Origin: Rhodospirillales bacterium | GTDB lineage: Bacteria > Pseudomonadota > Alphaproteobacteria > Kiloniellales > JACOMY01 | Reading direction: 5' to 3' | DNA length: 64,000 bases | Assembly: GCA_014324045.1 (NCBI GenBank) | Contig: JACOMY010000011.1 | Span: forward strand, 1-64,000 | Shown here: positions 42,505 to 50,714 of the stretch, piece by piece | Layout of the letters: each line of letters begins with the position of its first letter | Numbering within the stretch: the stretch's first letter is position 1 | Position numbers and translations under genes: made by a program | Notes under the pieces: model-generated | Told to the model about the DNA's origin: nothing | Database searches by the model: none | The model's input: only the letters and a program-made list of their open reading frames with translations

Positions 42505-42960
42505 ATGCCCAGCGCCAGCATGATCACGCCCCTCGGCGGCTTCGGCCTGATCGAGCGCGGCGGCGCCATCGTCGAGGCCTATTGGTGCGACCGCGAGGAA
42601 GCGCCGGCGACGCCGCTGTTGACCTCCGCGATGCAACAGTTGAAGGCCTACTTCGACGGCAGTCTAAGGCAATTCGGCCTGCCGCTGGCACCCGGCGGCG
42701 GCCCCTTCCAGCAAGCCGTCTGCACTGCGCTCTTGGCCATACCCTACGGGCGGACTAAGACCTACGGCGAAATCGCTAGGGACCTCGGCAGCTATGGCCA
42801 GCCAGTCGGCGCGGCCTGCGGCAGAAACCCCATCCCGCTTCTCATCCCCTGCCACCGCGTGCTGTCAGCCCAGGGACTCGGTGGTTTCTCTGCCCGCGGC
42901 GGTGTGGAAACCAAGATCGCGCTTTTGCAGCACGAAGGAGCTTATCCCTTTCTATTTTAA
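42505..42960 (+). CDS. ogt: Methylated-DNA--protein-cysteine methyltransferase
   Basis: The 151-residue protein repairs O6-alkylguanine by transfer of the alkyl group to its cysteine. The active-site motif is IPCHRVL with Cys116, preceded by the DNA-binding helix region YGEIARDLGSYGQPVGAACGRNP and followed by LGGFSARGGVETKIALLQHE. The N-terminal domain is shorter than in E. coli Ada-type proteins. It is divergent from soxB. Loss of formaldehyde or methyl stress control cannot be judged from the sequence. Confidence 0.92.
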   Translation: MPSASMITPLGGFGLIERGGAIVEAYWCDREEAPATPLLTSAMQQLKAYFDGSLRQFGLPLAPGGGPFQQAVCTALLAIPYGRTKTYGEIARDLGSYGQPVGAACGRNPIPLLIPCHRVLSAQGLGGFSARGGVETKIALLQHEGAYPFLF

Positions 42961-43234
42961 AGCGAAAAAGCGAACCACTGAATTCGGATCGCATTCACCG
43001 AGCATTTGGTGTGGCGCACCGCGCGTGCGATGTTGAGCTCCAGCAGCAATTCCGTCAAGGCTCGCGCGGTGAGCCCCGGTCATGCTGTCCGGATCGACGA
43101 TCCCCCCAGATGCCGATGCCAACTGCACAGGGCGTGGAGACGATGAAGACGGTGTTGATGGTCACACTTTTACGCCGTTCCTAGCCGTCCCTTCCGCCCA
43201 GATTTTTGCTTTATGGCAGGCGTTCATCCATGCC

Positions 43235-43690
43235 CTCTGCAGCCGCTTTTACCGAACGATAGACGAGGCAAAGCTCCATGCGATGATGGGCGAGCGATCA
43301 GTGGCATTTCCATGTCTTGCAGTCAGGTGGTCGCTGGAGCGCTGCGCCGGACGTTTAGGAACCCGAGAAAACTCCCATACAACCGCTTGGTACATCAGTC
43401 GGAAAGTCGCAAAGAATGTCTGGACGGGTATCTTCGATGGACGGTCGCAAACCGGAAGTCCTGCGCTTGAAGTGATGATCGATAGCACAGCTGTTGGGGC
43501 GCACCGGGTGGCTCGAAGCCCATGCCTTGGGCCGAGTTCGCGGTGGTACGGGAATCGAAATTTATGCCCTGAGCGACACAGGGGCCGGCCAATCGCCTGC
43601 CATCTCACCGGAGCCAATGTTTCAGACTTTACTGGAGCGGAGGCACTCTTACCGCTTGTTCCGAAAAACGGCATTCTGCATGGCGGCAAC
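43235..43690 (+). pseudogene. IS5-family transposase relic
   Basis: Fragments in three frames can be joined to an IS5-type transposase: PLLPNDRRGKAPCDDGRAISGI around 43230-43300 in one frame, HVLQSGGRWS in the next, then NVWTGIFDGRSQTGSP with the first catalytic Asp in VMIDSTAVGAHR near 43470-43510, and HLTGANVSDFTGAEALLPLV near 43600. The rest of the DDE domain is missing, and no terminal inverted repeats were found. It borders the R-M island that begins at 44203, so it may mark how that island arrived. Confidence 0.65.
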
Positions 43691-44202
43691 CGTTTGCTAA
43701 TGGTTATCAGTCCGAAGCCTAGGGCAGTGGATAAGTTTGAAGTTTCCAGCTGAGTTTCTGTACGGGACGCAACGTCTTCGAAGCATTCGCCTTTCCGTCA
43801 ATTAGCGCAATACGCTGGGCAATGTTCGACAGTTGATCAGACAAGCCTGCAGCCATCGCCAAGGAGGCCCACAACGTCTGATGAACCTTGACGAATTTTA
43901 GTACATGAAATGCAGCGTGATCGCGTATGTGTAGTTTTCGACCTCCTTATGAATGTGCGTTTGTGAGATAGGCGAACCTGCGCATGGAAATCCGCATAGT
44001 TATGTCCTGGCGCTGAACATGTGATGTGCTCTAATCGCTACTTTGTCTGGCTGGCTGGCCTTCCGCTTGACACGGGCTGCGCTCGCGCCTATGGCGTTGG
44101 GAGAAAATTAGGCACAGAGTCCGGTGCCGGACCCAATCTTTGGCGATGCTCGTATGCTAGCGGCTCCGGTAATCCGACACATACAATGGCCGGGCGGCGA
44201 AG
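43691..44202. other. Gene-free spacer before the R-M island
   Basis: No gene is supported. The base composition is less GC-rich than in the flanking housekeeping genes. The promoter of the methyltransferase operon should be in its 3' part, but I could not identify a convincing one. Confidence 0.5.
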
Positions 44203-45138
44203 ATGGATGAATACTACAGCACAGAATTGGGTACGGCGTATCGCGGTACCATCGAAGCGTTTCTTAAAAGTAGTCACACAGATCGCATCAGGGGCAAATT
44301 CGACCTGATCTTCACCTCTCCGCCTTTTCCGCTCGTTCTTAAGAAGAAGTACGGCAATCAGACAGGAGAGGAATATCTCAAATGGCTTGTCGCCGTTATC
44401 AGCCAGCTTTCAAAGCTTCTGCAAAAAGACGGTTCCCTCGTCATCGAGATCGGCAATGCGTGGCTCAAGGGATCGCCAGTTATGTCCACATTGTCGTTAG
44501 AGACCTTACTAGCGATCAGCAAGGAAACGAATCTGCACCTATGCCAACAATTTATTTGCCATAATCCGGCAAGACTTCCAGGCCCAGCGCAATGGGTCAC
44601 GATTGAACGGATACGCGTGAAAGATAGCTTTACGCATGTGTGGTGGTTTTCACCGAGCAAACGACCCAAAGCCTGCAATCGCAAAGTCCTCCAGCCTTAC
44701 GGAAAATCTATGCAGAGGCTCATGGCCGCCAAGCGCTACAATGCTGGGCCGCGCCCGTCCGGCCATAACATCAGTGAAGAGTCGTTCTTCGTCGATAACG
44801 GCGGTGCAATCCCACCCAATGTGCTGCAGTTCTCCAATACCTCCTCGAAAGCGGCCTACACCAAATGGTGCAAGAAGCATGACGTTTCGCCGCATCCGGC
44901 ACGCATGGCTCAAGGCCTGGTCGAGTTCTTCACGTCCTTCCTGACCGATGAAGGCGACCTCGTTCTCGATCCCTTTGCTGGCAGCAACACGACGGGCGCA
45001 ACCGCCGAAAAAATGCAGCGGCGTTGGATCGCTATTGAGAGCAATGAACCGTATCTCTTGGGATCGATGGGTCAATTTGACGATCCGGAATGCCTGCTTT
45101 CCAACTGTGCGCACGCACAAAGCCATGCTGCTGAATGA
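44203..45138 (+). CDS. DNA methyltransferase of a MORC-type R-M island
   Basis: The 311-residue protein has the order of a beta-class amino-methyltransferase: catalytic motif IV TSPPF at residues 38-42 comes first, and the SAM-binding motif I DPFAGSNTTG at 256-265 comes last. The motif TSPPF rather than DPPY suggests N4-cytosine or N6-adenine specificity. The region near 120-180 is probably the target-recognition part. The stop overlaps the helicase start (ATGA), the first of three translational couplings in a four-gene cluster. Composition is below the chromosome's GC level. Confidence 0.88.
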   Translation: MDEYYSTELGTAYRGTIEAFLKSSHTDRIRGKFDLIFTSPPFPLVLKKKYGNQTGEEYLKWLVAVISQLSKLLQKDGSLVIEIGNAWLKGSPVMSTLSLETLLAISKETNLHLCQQFICHNPARLPGPAQWVTIERIRVKDSFTHVWWFSPSKRPKACNRKVLQPYGKSMQRLMAAKRYNAGPRPSGHNISEESFFVDNGGAIPPNVLQFSNTSSKAAYTKWCKKHDVSPHPARMAQGLVEFFTSFLTDEGDLVLDPFAGSNTTGATAEKMQRRWIAIESNEPYLLGSMGQFDDPECLLSNCAHAQSHAAE

Positions 45139-46340
45139 GTGCTCCTGCTCTCAAATTTGGTCCCCGCGCCTGGCAGAAGAATGCCCTGCGCGCATGGGAG
45201 AAAGCCAGTAGACGTGGCATCGCCAAAGTCGTTACCGGTGGCGGTAAGACAGTTTTTGCCGAGCTTTGTATGTCGCGCGTGCTAGACGATTACAACGCGG
45301 CACACTTCGTCATTCTTGTTCCAACCATCTCCCTTCTCGACCAATGGACTCTCAGCCTTGAAGACGATTTTGGTGTCGAGGCCGATGACATCGCCCTTTG
45401 GTCCGGTGGCAAGAAGCCCAAAGAGGCCAGGACCTTCAATATCGCTGTGATCAACTCTGCCAGAGCGTTCATCGGCAAGATCGCCGGAGGCAATCATCCG
45501 ACCATGCTGATCGTGGACGAGGTGCACCGTGCGGCCAGTGAACAGAACGCCAAGGCGCTTGAAGGCGATTTCATTGCCACGCTCGGCCTCTCTGCAACAC
45601 CGGAACGCTAGTTCGACGATCTCTTCGAGGAAGTGCTGCAGCCGCGTATCGGCCCGATCATTTTCGACTATGACATTATCGCTGCCGCTAAGGATGGCAT
45701 CTTATCGCGCTTCGAGATCATCAATGTCGAGTTCGATCTTCTTGCTGACGAAGCCGATACCTACAATGATCTCACGGTCAGAATTGCCCGTCGCAGAGCC
45801 ATGGTCTCCGGCGATAACGATGAAGTGCTCGAAGCCTTGCTCCGCAAGCGTGCCCGCGTCTCGGCCATGGCCACCATGCGTGTTCCGCTCTCAGCGCGGA
45901 TTTGCGAACAGCATCAGAGCGCACGGACCTTGATCTTCCACGAAGATATCGGCGGGGGACGGAAGATATGTCAGACACTGATCGCGCGCAACCATTCCGT
46001 CACACTATATCATAGCCGAATTGCAGGTCCGAGGCGGCGCGAGAACCTCCGTATGTTCAAAAAGGGGATATTCGACGTTCTCGTGTGTTGCCGCGCCCTT
46101 GACGAAGGGTTAAACATCCCCGAAGTGGAAGTCGCAATTATTGCCAGTTCGACATCCAGCATGCGTCAGCGCATCCAGCGGCTTGGAAGGGTTCTACGAC
46201 CCCATGCCAGCAAGGAAAAAGCCAGCATATACACGCTATTTGCCACCAGTGCAGAAAGAGACAGGCTCACCGCAGAAGCCGTAACCCTTCAGGAGATCGC
46301 CGACATTCGCTGGGCCAGGGCGGGCAAATCCGATGGCTAG
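45135..46340 (+). pseudogene. SF2 DEAD/DEAH helicase gene with one amber stop
   Basis: The frame from the ATG at 45135 to 46340 has 402 codons and is open except for TAG at 45609-45611 (codon 159). Helicase motifs are I GGGKT (35-39), II DEVH (128-131), III LSATPER (just before the stop), and VI QRIQRLGRVLRP near the C-terminus. The second half reads FDDLFEEVLQPRIGP directly after the TAG, so a single substitution of Tyr or another codon is the likely cause. The downstream frame is otherwise intact, which implies a recent event, readthrough or a sequencing error. It overlaps the next gene by eight bases. It is predicted to translocate along DNA for the endonuclease. Confidence 0.8.
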
Positions 46341-47121
46341 ATTATTGTTTGATGGTCAGTGGTTCAATCCGGTGCAGGCAGATTCCATCTACGAGTCCGA
46401 TCTTGAGGATCTGATCATCAAGCAGGCCCCTGTGATCTACCCGAACTATTGGGTGATCAAATACAAGCGGGTCATCGCCTCCGAATATGGAACCGCTATC
46501 CCCGATCTGGCCTTCATCGAGAAGAGCTACCGTGCCTGGTATCTCTGTGAGGTAGAGCTTGGCTCCCATGATCTCTTCGCCCATGTCATGCCGCAAGTTT
46601 CGGTTTTCTGCAATGCCCTTGTCGGCCGCGCCGAAGCATGTTACCTCGCAAAAAAAGAAACCATGTTGGACGTCTCGCAGCTTACCGCCATGATGCAGGG
46701 TGTGCGGCCCGGTGTCCTTGTTCTTGTCAACGCATTTGATCCTCGGTGGTGGCGCGCCCTCACCGAATCGGGCGCGCTGGTGGGCTTAATCGAGCTTTAC
46801 CGTGATTCCGGCCAACGTTTCATCATGCGGATCAACGGAGATGACCTGCACATCCCCGAACAACTGATCAGTGAGTGCGTACGCGATAAGCTCCTGCCCA
46901 ATGCCTTGCGAGTCAGTGCTCCTGCGCCCATCGATCAACTGGCAAATCCTGATCTTGAGCTTTGGTACGAGGGCGGGCGCACGGTCTGGAAAGTACTGCG
47001 CACCGGCGGCTCGTGCTGGCTCCTGCCCAAGGAACGATGCCCGCTTAGGGTAAAAGATCAACGCTATATCATCACGCGCGATACCAATGCGCGCGTCAGA
47101 TTGGAGAGGGCCAAAAAATAA
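46333..47121 (+). CDS. PD-(D/E)XK-like predicted nuclease of the R-M island
   Basis: The 262-residue protein shows a plausible restriction-endonuclease-like core: an early acidic residue in SDLEDLI (about 22-28), then IPDLAFIEKSYRAWYLCEVEL at about 57-76 with Asp58 and Glu73-Val-Glu75. That gives PD...ExE rather than the usual ExK, so the catalytic lysine could be replaced or supplied elsewhere. The C-terminal half has no recognised domain. It overlaps the helicase by eight bases and the ATPase by one, so all are expected to be made together. Assignment is by motif and context. Confidence 0.65.
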   Translation: MARLLFDGQWFNPVQADSIYESDLEDLIIKQAPVIYPNYWVIKYKRVIASEYGTAIPDLAFIEKSYRAWYLCEVELGSHDLFAHVMPQVSVFCNALVGRAEACYLAKKETMLDVSQLTAMMQGVRPGVLVLVNAFDPRWWRALTESGALVGLIELYRDSGQRFIMRINGDDLHIPEQLISECVRDKLLPNALRVSAPAPIDQLANPDLELWYEGGRTVWKVLRTGGSCWLLPKERCPLRVKDQRYIITRDTNARVRLERAKK

Positions 47122-48647
47122 TGAGCCTCACTTTTATAATCGAGAATAACGTTGTTCTGTCCTACCGTCGCCTGTCCTACACGCATTGGCACGCTTTGGC
47201 TGAGTTTGTGGACAACTCCACACAAGCTTATTTCAACAGCCGCGACGAGCTTGATCCGCGCCTCAAAGAGGAAGGCGAAAGGCTCGAAGTGCGTATAACT
47301 TATGATCGGAACACCGCTTCTTTGCGCATTGCGGACAACTCCATCGGGATGTCCTACGAAGAGTTGGATCGCGCCCTGAAGATCGGCAAGCCGCCACCCA
47401 ACACATCGGGGCGCTCGCAGTATGGCATGGGAATGAAAACGGCCGCATGCTGGTTCGGTGAGGGCTGGGAGATTGTCACCAAGCGCTTGGGCGAGAACGT
47501 CGAGCACAGCGTGTTCATCGATGTTTCCAAGGTGGCTTCCGGCAACAACGCGCTCGAATACACAACAAAACCCAAGCAAGAAAATGCACACTACACCTAT
47601 ATCACAGTCAAAAAACTGCATTCCAAGATTTTGGGACGAACGATCTGGAAGATAAAGGACTTCCTGCGGTCCATATACCGTGTTGATTTGCGCGAAGGGC
47701 GTTTGCGCCTCTGGTTCCAGGATGAAGAACTTGTTTGGCAGGACGAAACGATCTTCCTGCAAAAGCCTGATGGCACACTCTACAAGCGGGATTTTAAGTT
47801 TCAGGTATATGGCAAGGACGCCCATGGCTGGTTCGGTATTCTCGGAAAAGGCCGGACGGGCCGTGCCAATGCCGGTTTCTCTATCCTACGGCGGAAACGC
47901 ATGGTGCGTGGCCACCCTGCGGCGTGGAGGCCGGAAGACATTTATGGCCCCGGCGGTAGGAACGACCTGATCAATCAGCGGCTCGTTGGTGAAATTCACC
48001 TTGATCAGTTCTCCGTCTCCCACACAAAGGACGACATCCAATGGGAGAATGACGAGGAAGAAAAGGTCGAAGCGGCTCTGGCGCAAGAATGCGCTGATTT
48101 CACCACCTTCATCAAAGCTTCAGGCAAGCGTCAGGGCGGCGACACGCGAGGTCCCACAGCTGTCGAGGTTCAGACCGCGACAGACGAACTACGCCAAGAA
48201 ATGGAATCCAAGGAATTCGTGGACTCGATCACCATCGATGATGCACCGCCCCCTGAAATCGTTGCTGCGGCAAATGCACAGATCGTCGCCAAAGCCTCGG
48301 AACACGAACCGGATCTCACACTTCGCGTTGGCGACCGTCAGTGCAAGATATTCATCTCCGACGATCATTCCGTGAACGACCCCTATTACGTTCACGAGAT
48401 CACCAAAGAGAGCACGGTGGTGGTAGTAAACAAAAACCATCCTCACTGGACCGAACTTCAAGGATCGGAAGGTGTTTTCAACTACTTACGTCATTGCGTC
48501 TATGACGCAATCGCAGAGTGGAAGGCCTCATTGCGAACCTCGCCAATCCGTCCCGAAACAGTGCGCACCTATAAAGATAAACTTCTACAACTACCAGCCG
48601 AAATTGAAGATATATATAGTAAAGATGCCAATCAAGAACTTGAATGA
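47121..48647 (+). CDS. MORC/MutL-like GHKL ATPase of the R-M island
   Basis: The 508-residue protein has the GHKL ATP-binding fold at residues 20-120. Motif I is ALAEFVDNS with Glu28 (general base) and Asn32 (Mg ligand), motif II is ADNSIGM, and the lid is QYGMGMKTAA at 100-109. The S5-like transducer half follows (about 200-330), and a charged, possibly coiled C-terminus. Such ATPases, close to eukaryotic MORC proteins, were reported in bacterial R-M clusters with methyltransferases and SF2 helicases. ATP-driven clamp closure around DNA is the suggested role. The start codon overlaps the preceding stop (TAATG). Confidence 0.85.
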   Translation: MSLTFIIENNVVLSYRRLSYTHWHALAEFVDNSTQAYFNSRDELDPRLKEEGERLEVRITYDRNTASLRIADNSIGMSYEELDRALKIGKPPPNTSGRSQYGMGMKTAACWFGEGWEIVTKRLGENVEHSVFIDVSKVASGNNALEYTTKPKQENAHYTYITVKKLHSKILGRTIWKIKDFLRSIYRVDLREGRLRLWFQDEELVWQDETIFLQKPDGTLYKRDFKFQVYGKDAHGWFGILGKGRTGRANAGFSILRRKRMVRGHPAAWRPEDIYGPGGRNDLINQRLVGEIHLDQFSVSHTKDDIQWENDEEEKVEAALAQECADFTTFIKASGKRQGGDTRGPTAVEVQTATDELRQEMESKEFVDSITIDDAPPPEIVAAANAQIVAKASEHEPDLTLRVGDRQCKIFISDDHSVNDPYYVHEITKESTVVVVNKNHPHWTELQGSEGVFNYLRHCVYDAIAEWKASLRTSPIRPETVRTYKDKLLQLPAEIEDIYSKDANQELE

Positions 48648-49483: not shown

Positions 49484-50714
49484 CTAGGCCGCCTTGCGCC
49501 CGCGGGCGCTGACCACGGCCTCAAGCGAGGTTTCGAGCACGTCAAGCGCTTCCTGCAACTGATTCATCGGGATGGTCAGCGGGGTCAGGAGGCAAATCAC
49601 ATTGCCCTTGGTGCCGCAGTTCAACAGCAGCACACCACGCCGTTCTGCCTCGGCCATGAGGTCGGCGGTCAGCACCGGGGCGGCCTCCTTGGAAGCACGG
49701 TCAGTAACCAACTCGAAGGCCACCATGGCGCCGAGGCCGCGCACATCGCCGATGCACTCCATCCCTTGACGCGCGGCGATCGACTGCAGGCGGTCGGTCA
49801 TGATCTTACCGATTTCGGCTGCGCGCGCACAGAGGTTTTCCTCCTCGATCACGTCCAGGACGGCATGAGAAGCGGCGACGGAGATCGGCGGTCCCGCATA
49901 GGTGCCGCCGAAGCCCGCCAGGATTGGGGGCGTCCACAATCTCCTTGCGCCCGGTGACGGCCGACAGCGGGAATCCGCCGCCCAGGCCTTTGGCCATGGT
50001 TACCAGATCGGGCTGCACGCCGTAGTGCTCGAGCGCCAGCATCTTGCCGGTGCGCGCGATGCCGGTCTGAATCTCGTCCAGGATCAGCAGAATGCCGTAC
50101 CGGTCGGCGATCTCGCGCAGGCCCTCGAGGAAGGCCTTGGGCGCAACGTTGAAGCCACCCTCGCCCTGCACCGGCTCTACCGGGATATCGTGGAAGGGGT
50201 GCGGGAAGGGCGCATGGATCACCTCCGCCGGCATGGCGCCGAAGCCCTTCTTGTAGGGCACCAGCTTACCGGTCAACGCCATGCCCATCAGCGTCCGTCC
50301 GTGAAAACCGCCGTAGAAGGAGATGACAGCAGAACGACCGCTGTAGGCCCGCGCCATCTTGATCGCGTTCTCACCGCCTCGACGCCGGTGGTGACCAGCA
50401 TGGTCTTTTTCTCAAAGTCGCCGGGGACCAGCTCGTTCAGACGCTCGGCCAGACCGATGTAACCCTCGAAGGGACTAACGTTAAAGCAAGTGTGGGTGGA
50501 ATTTCTCACACTGCTCGGCGACCGCGGCCATCACCTTGGGATGACGGTGACCGGTATTCAGAACCGCAATGCCGGCGGCCATGTCGATGTAGCGCTTGCC
50601 GTCTACATCCCAAATCTCGGCATTCTCCGCACGCTCCGCATAGATTCTGCGCGTCGCGATCCCCTCCGCCACAGCGTCCTTGTGCCGCGCTGTCAGATCC
50701 TCACTTGCAGCCAT
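49484..50714 (-). pseudogene. gabT: Broken 4-aminobutyrate aminotransferase (gabT) gene
   Basis: The sequence is clearly GabT: HKDAVAEGIATRRIYAERAE, DMAAGIAVLNTGHRHPKV, MARAYSGRSAVISFYGGFHG, LILDEIQTGIARTGKMLA and MAKGLGGGFPLSAVTGRKE (with the PLP lysine). At least three single-base indels shift the frame: after CEKF near 50495, after GVEAV near 50370, and at GG/TYAG near 49925. A block between FHDIP and VEPVQGEGG (near 50170) is also missing, roughly 20-30 residues compared with intact family members. No full-length product is possible. The divergent regulator upstream (50826) is broken too, so GABA or polyamine catabolism has been lost here. Confidence 0.9.

What the first reader, a model, noticed from the sequence alone, without database searches (positions are those of the whole stretch)
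44203..48647. Four-gene MORC/MutL-type restriction-modification island
A beta-class methyltransferase, an SF2 helicase, a PD-(D/E)XK-like protein and a GHKL ATPase overlap by 4, 8 and 1 bases, so they must act as a unit. The GHKL protein has Glu28, Asn32 and a QYGMGMKTAA lid like MORC proteins. A link between MORC-like ATPases and bacterial R-M clusters has been proposed by comparative genomics (Iyer, Abhiman and Aravind, 2008), but the mechanism of such a four-protein set is, to my knowledge, little tested. Base composition and a nearby IS5 relic suggest transfer.
Basis: partly seen in the sequence, partly recalled or inferred. Interest (0 to 1): 0.85.

Follow-up and report, generated by a model that had tools for sequence, protein, structure and literature searches.

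The report
MORC-type restriction module with broken helicase
Four tightly packed, apparently transferred bacterial genes encode a DNA-marking enzyme, a DNA motor, a probable DNA-cutting protein and a MORC-type ATPase that recur together in distant bacteria and, without the motor, in phages; the set fits a known class of predicted anti-virus systems, but its nuclease family is uncatalogued and the motor gene in this genome is interrupted by a stop codon.

Summary
Searches with the MORC protein alone recovered complete sets in three other bacteria: two with the same gene order and one reordered. Two phage contigs carry methyltransferase, nuclease-like protein and MORC but no helicase. The unit is therefore genuine, and its core is three genes.

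The methyltransferase is M.PvuII-like, hence probably N4-cytosine. The ATPase has every GHKL motif and the published MORC S5 motif. The third protein matches no Pfam, NCBIfam, PADLOC or PHROGs family; conserved E-D-ExE-Q residues and two AlphaFold models support a PD-(D/E)XK-like fold with a lysine-to-glutamate change, perhaps followed by a B3-like domain.

This is a new variant of the MORC restriction-modification operons predicted by Iyer et al. in 2008. Compared with the dcm-MORC-Z1-DUF4420 set it fills the same slots with a different methyltransferase, helicase and nuclease. Likely mechanism: methylation marks self and the MORC ATPase licenses cleavage of unmarked DNA, the helicase being accessory. 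The window copy may be impaired.

The parts
44083..44202 (+). Upstream stretch conserved with L004 at DNA level; probable promoter/leader of the cassette
   Evidence: blastn alignment window 44083-48611 to L004 4962-9491, 75% identity; homology does not continue into the flanks
44203..45138 (+). M.PvuII-like beta-class DNA methyltransferase, predicted N4-cytosine (311 aa; TSPPF motif IV, DPFAGSNTTG motif I)
   Evidence: Pfam N6_N4_Mtase 8e-31; PDB 1boo M.PvuII E 4.7e-86 over nearly full length with family profile
45135..46340 (+). SF2 helicase gene (Rad25/PbeA/DndI-like), interrupted by an in-frame stop
   Evidence: ResIII 9.3e-22 in the first part, Helicase_C 2.2e-16 in the second; PbeA models 3.7e-28 and 1.1e-40; TIGR04095
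45609..45611 (+). In-frame TAG separating RecA domain 1 (motifs I-III) from RecA domain 2 (motifs IV-VI)
   Evidence: relatives L004, L079 and L047 are uninterrupted
46333..47121 (+). PD-(D/E)XK-like protein of an uncatalogued family (262 aa): E21, E25, P57-D58-L59, E73-V74-E75, H79, H84, Q88; possible C-terminal B3-like DNA-binding domain
   Evidence: no family in Pfam, NCBIfam, PADLOC or PHROGs; invariant residues; AlphaFold mean pLDDT 76.0 and, for homologue L079, 86.6; Foldseek
47121..48647 (+). MORC-type GHKL ATPase with S5 domain and a subfamily-specific C-terminal region (508 aa)
   Evidence: HATPase_c_3 1.5e-19; motif GFSILRRKRMV fits GhXhhpXXRhl of Iyer et al.; invariant E28, N32, D72, G76, K106, T159, K303
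43082..43753 (+). Decayed IS5-family-like transposase remnant upstream of the cassette (frame-shifted)
   Evidence: three-frame reading shows MIDSTAVGAHR, ALGRVRGGTGIEIYALSDT and GRPIACHLTGANVSD in different frames; no Pfam hit in the one frame tested

Best explanation
A laterally transferred restriction-modification type defence module. The M.PvuII-like enzyme marks host DNA, probably at cytosine N4 of a short site. The MORC ATPase (a GHKL clamp, as in MutL) closes on DNA with ATP and, together with the PD-(D/E)XK-like protein, which probably also contacts DNA through its C-terminal domain, licenses cleavage of DNA lacking the mark. The SF2 helicase is an accessory translocase: present in bacterial versions, absent in phage versions. 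In this genome the helicase is cut in two by a stop codon, so the copy either works in the three-gene mode or has lost restriction strength. Shown: gene content, conservation of the set, motifs, folds with moderate confidence, the stop. Inferred: methylated base and site, complex formation, cleavage, defence.
For: Four-gene sets in L004 (same order, 77-86% identity), L079 (same order, 27-52%) and L047 (MT-MORC-HEL-NRE, 31-57%), all found by MORC searches; three-gene sets in phage contigs L039 and L057. M.PvuII match. PD-(D/E)XK-like invariants and folds. GHKL, S5 and MORC motifs. Parallel dcm-MORC-Z1-DUF4420 operons fill the same functional slots. Integrases beside the cassette in L004, L047 and L039. 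Low dN/dS against L004: MORC 0.049, NRE 0.068, helicase halves 0.078 and 0.029, with dS near saturation. The MORC/SF2/nuclease link was predicted in PMC2292703.
Against: No experiment on any member was found. The nuclease motif has E in place of the usual K, so it could be inactive. The window helicase is broken. M.PvuII-like methyltransferases also occur alone or with other partners, so the methyltransferase by itself is not diagnostic.
Confidence: 0.62

Rival explanations
1. Decaying remnant: the helicase stop has inactivated restriction here, and only the methyltransferase (an orphan modification enzyme) still acts; the other genes are on the way out.
For: In-frame TAG in the helicase; a decayed IS remnant and a frame-broken aminotransferase gene flank the cassette; no usable start with a well-spaced ribosome site is obvious for the C-terminal part.
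Against: The other three frames are intact and the helicase has no second lesion; phages keep a helicase-free version; PbeA, the nearest characterised helicase relative, is only partly required for defence in PbeABCD (PMC6459918).
Confidence: 0.3
2. Defence without cleavage: the ExE protein is a catalytically dead DNA-binding subunit, and the complex blocks replication or transcription of unmarked DNA, in the manner reported for PbeABCD.
For: Lys of PD-(D/E)XK is Glu in all six homologues; the helicase scores best with PbeA models; PbeABCD stops viral replication without cutting DNA (PMC6459918).
Against: All acidic metal-binding positions and the following Gln are invariant in six divergent sequences, which a dead enzyme need not keep; ExE occurs in the active enzyme BamHI (general knowledge, not tested here). 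None of PbeB, PbeC, PbeD is encoded here.
Confidence: 0.2
3. Phage-type modification or superinfection-exclusion cassette: it spread from prophages, and its main role is to protect or favour the mobile element rather than to defend the host.
For: Two phage or prophage contigs carry the three-gene core beside integrase or terminase genes; L004 and L047 cassettes lie beside tyrosine recombinases.
Against: Most full sets found lie in bacterial chromosomes with a helicase; defence and element protection are not exclusive.
Confidence: 0.2

Closest known systems
Prokaryotic MORC restriction-modification operons (Iyer, Abhiman and Aravind 2008, PMC2292703)
   Same: GHKL+S5 ATPase with the MORC motif, SF2 helicase, restriction-fold nuclease and DNA methyltransferase in one operon; patchy, mobile distribution; helicase-free minority also noted there
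   Different: That text reports mostly cytosine (DCM) and rarely adenine methylases; here the methyltransferase is M.PvuII-like, the nuclease is stand-alone and of an unlisted family, and a phage-borne three-gene form exists
dcm-MORC-Z1 helicase-DUF4420 operons (Iyer third type; L005, L006, L042, L049, L050, L080)
   Same: Four functional slots in a row; MORC proteins about 31-38% identical over about 320-380 residues
   Different: C5 methyltransferase, Z1 helicase and DUF4420 nuclease in place of N4 methyltransferase, Rad25/PbeA-like helicase and the unassigned ExE protein; the two nuclease families show no profile similarity
MutL-MutH-UvrD mismatch repair
   Same: GHKL ATPase working with a separate restriction-fold nuclease and a helicase under control of DNA methylation (analogy made in PMC2292703)
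   Different: No MutS, no mismatch role implied; dedicated methyltransferase in the operon; SF2, not UvrD-type, helicase
PbeABCD / Dnd-associated systems
   Same: Helicase most similar to PbeA and TIGR04095; a plasmid (L074) pairs an M.PvuII-like methyltransferase with a PbeABCD-like set
   Different: No PbeB, PbeC, PbeD, no dnd genes, no PLD domain; MORC present
Shedu type I-D such as VcSduA (PMC12137116)
   Same: GHKL ATPase controlling a PD-(D/E)XK nuclease in phage defence
   Different: VcSduA is one fused protein with a DUF4263 nuclease; here the proteins are separate and no DUF4263 was found

Membership tests
Prokaryotic MORC ATPase | Four GHKL ATP-binding motifs | tested here: met
   HATPase_c_3 1.5e-19; E28, N32, D72, G76, G102, G104, K106, T159 invariant in six sequences
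Prokaryotic MORC ATPase | S5 domain with GhXhhpXXRhl motif | tested here: met
   Window GFSILRRKRMV fits at every position; subfamily keeps G252, S254 and R260, but L047 and L039 depart at hydrophobic positions; motif from PMC2292703
Prokaryotic MORC ATPase | Operon with SF2 helicase and DNA methylase or nuclease | tested here: met
   helicase absent in L039 and L057
paraMORC2 | Conserved ExxxH in the C-terminal part of S5 | tested here: not met
   No ExxxH in the S5 region of the alignment, read directly
paraMORC3 / Shedu type I-D | Nuclease domain fused C-terminal to the GHKL protein | tested here: not met
   Only HATPase-type models give meaningful matches to the 508-aa protein; no DUF4263 or other nuclease domain
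M.PvuII-type N4-cytosine methyltransferase | Full-length similarity to M.PvuII, motif IV SPPF before motif I | tested here: met
   1boo 4.7e-86, aligned 4-297 of 303
M.PvuII-type N4-cytosine methyltransferase | N4-cytosine product at CAGCTG | not testable with these tools
   Needs methylome data
PD-(D/E)XK nuclease superfamily | E-D-(D/E)xK active site | tested here: inconclusive
   E25, D58, E73, Q88 invariant but the lysine is glutamate (E75) in all six
PD-(D/E)XK nuclease superfamily | alpha-beta-beta-beta-alpha-beta core fold | tested here: met
   Order of elements in both models; many Foldseek matches to PD-(D/E)XK proteins (NucS/EndoMS, MGME1, TT1808, YaeQ, MunI, viral nucleases), individually weak
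Iyer third-type operon (dcm-MORC-Z1-DUF4420) | Z1 helicase, C5 methyltransferase, DUF4420 nuclease | tested here: not met
   None of these Pfam families in the window genes; present in the outgroup operons
PbeABCD | PbeB, PbeC, PbeD partners | tested here: not met
   Only the helicase scores with a Pbe model

The most novel reading that the evidence does not exclude
The operon represents a distinct MORC restriction class in which the MORC dimer, not a helicase, is the essential ATP-driven licensing factor for a stand-alone ExE nuclease with a B3-like reader; the three-gene core moves between phages and bacteria and the helicase is an optional add-on, which is why the window copy tolerates a split helicase.
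Probability: 0.35. Interest if true: 0.75.

Novelty: new variant of a known kind. Interest (0 to 1): 0.5.

Why it matters
MORC proteins silence transposons and compact chromatin in animals and plants, and their proposed bacterial ancestors in restriction systems have remained little tested: a 2021 paper calls the biochemistry of bacterial MORCs poorly understood (PMC8011034), and no test was found in the papers searched. A compact three-gene, helicase-free version with an M.PvuII-like methyltransferase would be a simple system to test whether a MORC ATPase gates a nuclease by DNA methylation. The nuclease-like protein belongs to a family absent from the four libraries searched, so these operons are likely to go unlabelled by current defence-finding tools.

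Tried and rejected
NRE searches of plasmids, phages and viral contigs mostly found nothing; the MORC protein gave nothing in phage records. Direct PDB sequence search for NRE was uninformative. Homology of NRE with the DUF4420 nucleases of Z1 operons was tested and not found. Shedu, paraMORC2/3 and PbeABCD membership rejected (see membership table). A solitary-methyltransferase reading was considered because M.PvuII-like enzymes are common in viral contigs without the partners, but it does not explain the recurring neighbours. CAGCTG counts (33 in the window, about 21 expected from base composition, 1 in the island) say nothing decisive.

Full report
Observation. The window holds four same-strand genes at 44203-45138, 45135-46340, 46333-47121 and 47121-48647 with overlaps of 4, 8 and 1 bases, as reported. 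Upstream lie the Walker A and DEVH motifs (RecA domain 1); downstream, in the same frame, lies the second RecA domain with QRIQRLGRVLRP. The Roseovarius MAG relative (L004) has a sense codon there and one open frame. The first start in the downstream part is GTG 45633, with a purine-rich stretch placed too close to be a convincing ribosome site (my reading).

Is it a unit? Searches that used the MORC protein found relatives with full-length MORC similarity, and these came with the other genes: L004 (Roseovarius MAG), MT-HEL-NRE-MORC in the same order, identities 77, 84, 77 and 86%; L079 (genome G1143, same phylum, another class), same order, 52, 43, 27 and 44%; L047 (G101, same class), order MT-MORC-HEL-NRE, 57, 44, 31 and 36% (also found independently with the NRE profile). 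Two viral contigs, L039 (integrase immediately upstream, phage structural-type genes downstream) and L057 (terminase and portal-like genes downstream), carry MT-NRE-MORC with no helicase. The set is rare: apart from the window's own genome it was seen in 1 of about 385 genomes of the class and in 1 of 369 genomes of another class of the phylum.

Methyltransferase. A profile of four relatives matches M.PvuII (1boo) at 4.7e-86 over nearly the full length; the TSPPF motif precedes the DPFAGSNTTG motif, as in beta-class enzymes. By homology it methylates cytosine N4; the site may or may not be CAGCTG. Such enzymes are common on plasmids and phages with other partners.

Helicase. ResIII and Helicase_C domains, best models PbeA and TIGR04095, DNA phosphorothioation restriction; XPB/Rad25-like C-terminal part. 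It corresponds to the Rad25-like class of Iyer et al. but lacks a fused nuclease.

Third protein. No match in Pfam, PADLOC, NCBIfam or PHROGs. Six sequences as little as about 23% identical to the window protein keep E21, E25, P57-D58-L59, E73-V74-E75, H79, L81, H84 and Q88, that is E...PD...ExE...Q. The lysine of ExK is glutamate, as in BamHI (general knowledge). AlphaFold models of the window protein (mean pLDDT 76.0, pTM 0.60) and of the L079 protein (86.6, 0.67) give helix-strand-strand-strand-helix-strand order in the first half and a beta-rich C-terminal half. Foldseek matches are weak but repeatedly PD-(D/E)XK proteins: EndoMS/NucS, MGME1, R2 endonuclease, TT1808, YaeQ, MunI, and viral PD-(D/E)XK proteins, with the best viral match at 2.8e-4 (unnamed). 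B3-domain structures (LlaJI.R1 N-terminal domain, VRN1) also appear, suggesting a DNA-reading C-terminal domain; this is a lead, not a result. CglI and NgoAVII restriction proteins also join a nuclease to a B3-like domain (PMC4267653).

ATPase. All GHKL motifs are present, and the S5 motif GFSILRRKRMV fits the published MORC signature GhXhhpXXRhl. The paraMORC2 ExxxH and paraMORC3 fused nuclease features are absent. The nearest other MORCs lie in dcm-MORC-Z1-DUF4420 operons. Those operons fill the same slots with a different methyltransferase, helicase and nuclease; the two nuclease families show no profile similarity. This parallel argues that MORC plus methyltransferase plus nuclease is the functional theme.

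Transfer. Island GC is 53.7% against 62.2%. DNA similarity to L004 begins at 44083, 120 bases before the first gene, and ends at 48611, while flanks are unrelated. L004 has three tyrosine-recombinase-type genes upstream, L047 one downstream and L039 one upstream. An IS5-like remnant with several frame breaks precedes the window copy. Synonymous divergence from L004 is near saturation, so the two copies are not a very recent exchange; protein change is low (dN/dS 0.03-0.08 where computable). That selection mostly predates the stop codon and cannot show that the helicase is functional now.

Mechanism. Inferred, following Iyer et al.: methylation marks self; the MORC clamp with ATP organises DNA and licenses the nuclease; the helicase moves or unwinds DNA. 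The phage versions show that the set can be kept without a linked helicase, and PbeA, the closest characterised helicase relative, is only partly required in its own system (PMC6459918). The window copy is therefore either a three-gene-mode system or an impaired one.

Novelty. The idea is from 2008. New here: the M.PvuII-like methyltransferase pairing, an uncatalogued ExE nuclease-like family, the shuffled and helicase-free architectures including phages, and the nonsense codon. The papers searched held no test of such a set, but subscription journals and preprints were largely not covered, and figures of the 2008 paper were not readable, so an example of this exact gene set may be drawn there.

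Noticed in passing
G000 contig C15, locus L096:3623-10862: Second defence island in the same genome: a restriction endonuclease-like gene, a second M.PvuII-like methyltransferase (49% identical to the window one), then type III mod- and res-like genes.
   Followed up: partly
window 49484-50357 (-): Class III aminotransferase gene next to the island is split between two frames, so it is a pseudogene or a sequencing error.
   Followed up: partly
L074:1295-8297 (Aurantiacibacter atlanticus plasmid NZ_CP015441.1): M.PvuII-like methyltransferase (71% to that of L047) heads a PbeABCD-like set with a small 'DNA modification system-associated' protein, next to integrases: methylation rather than phosphorothioation partner.
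   Followed up: partly
L077:3596-7082 (Roseivivax marinus plasmid): Restriction endonuclease, M.PvuII-like methyltransferase and HNH endonuclease in a row.
   Followed up: no
L079:3439-7854: In this genome the whole four-gene set lies upstream of and opposite to murJ- and ribF-like genes, a possible insertion hotspot.
   Followed up: no
window 42505-42960 (+): Methylated-DNA cysteine methyltransferase (ogt-like) gene lies upstream of the island and the IS remnant.
   Followed up: no
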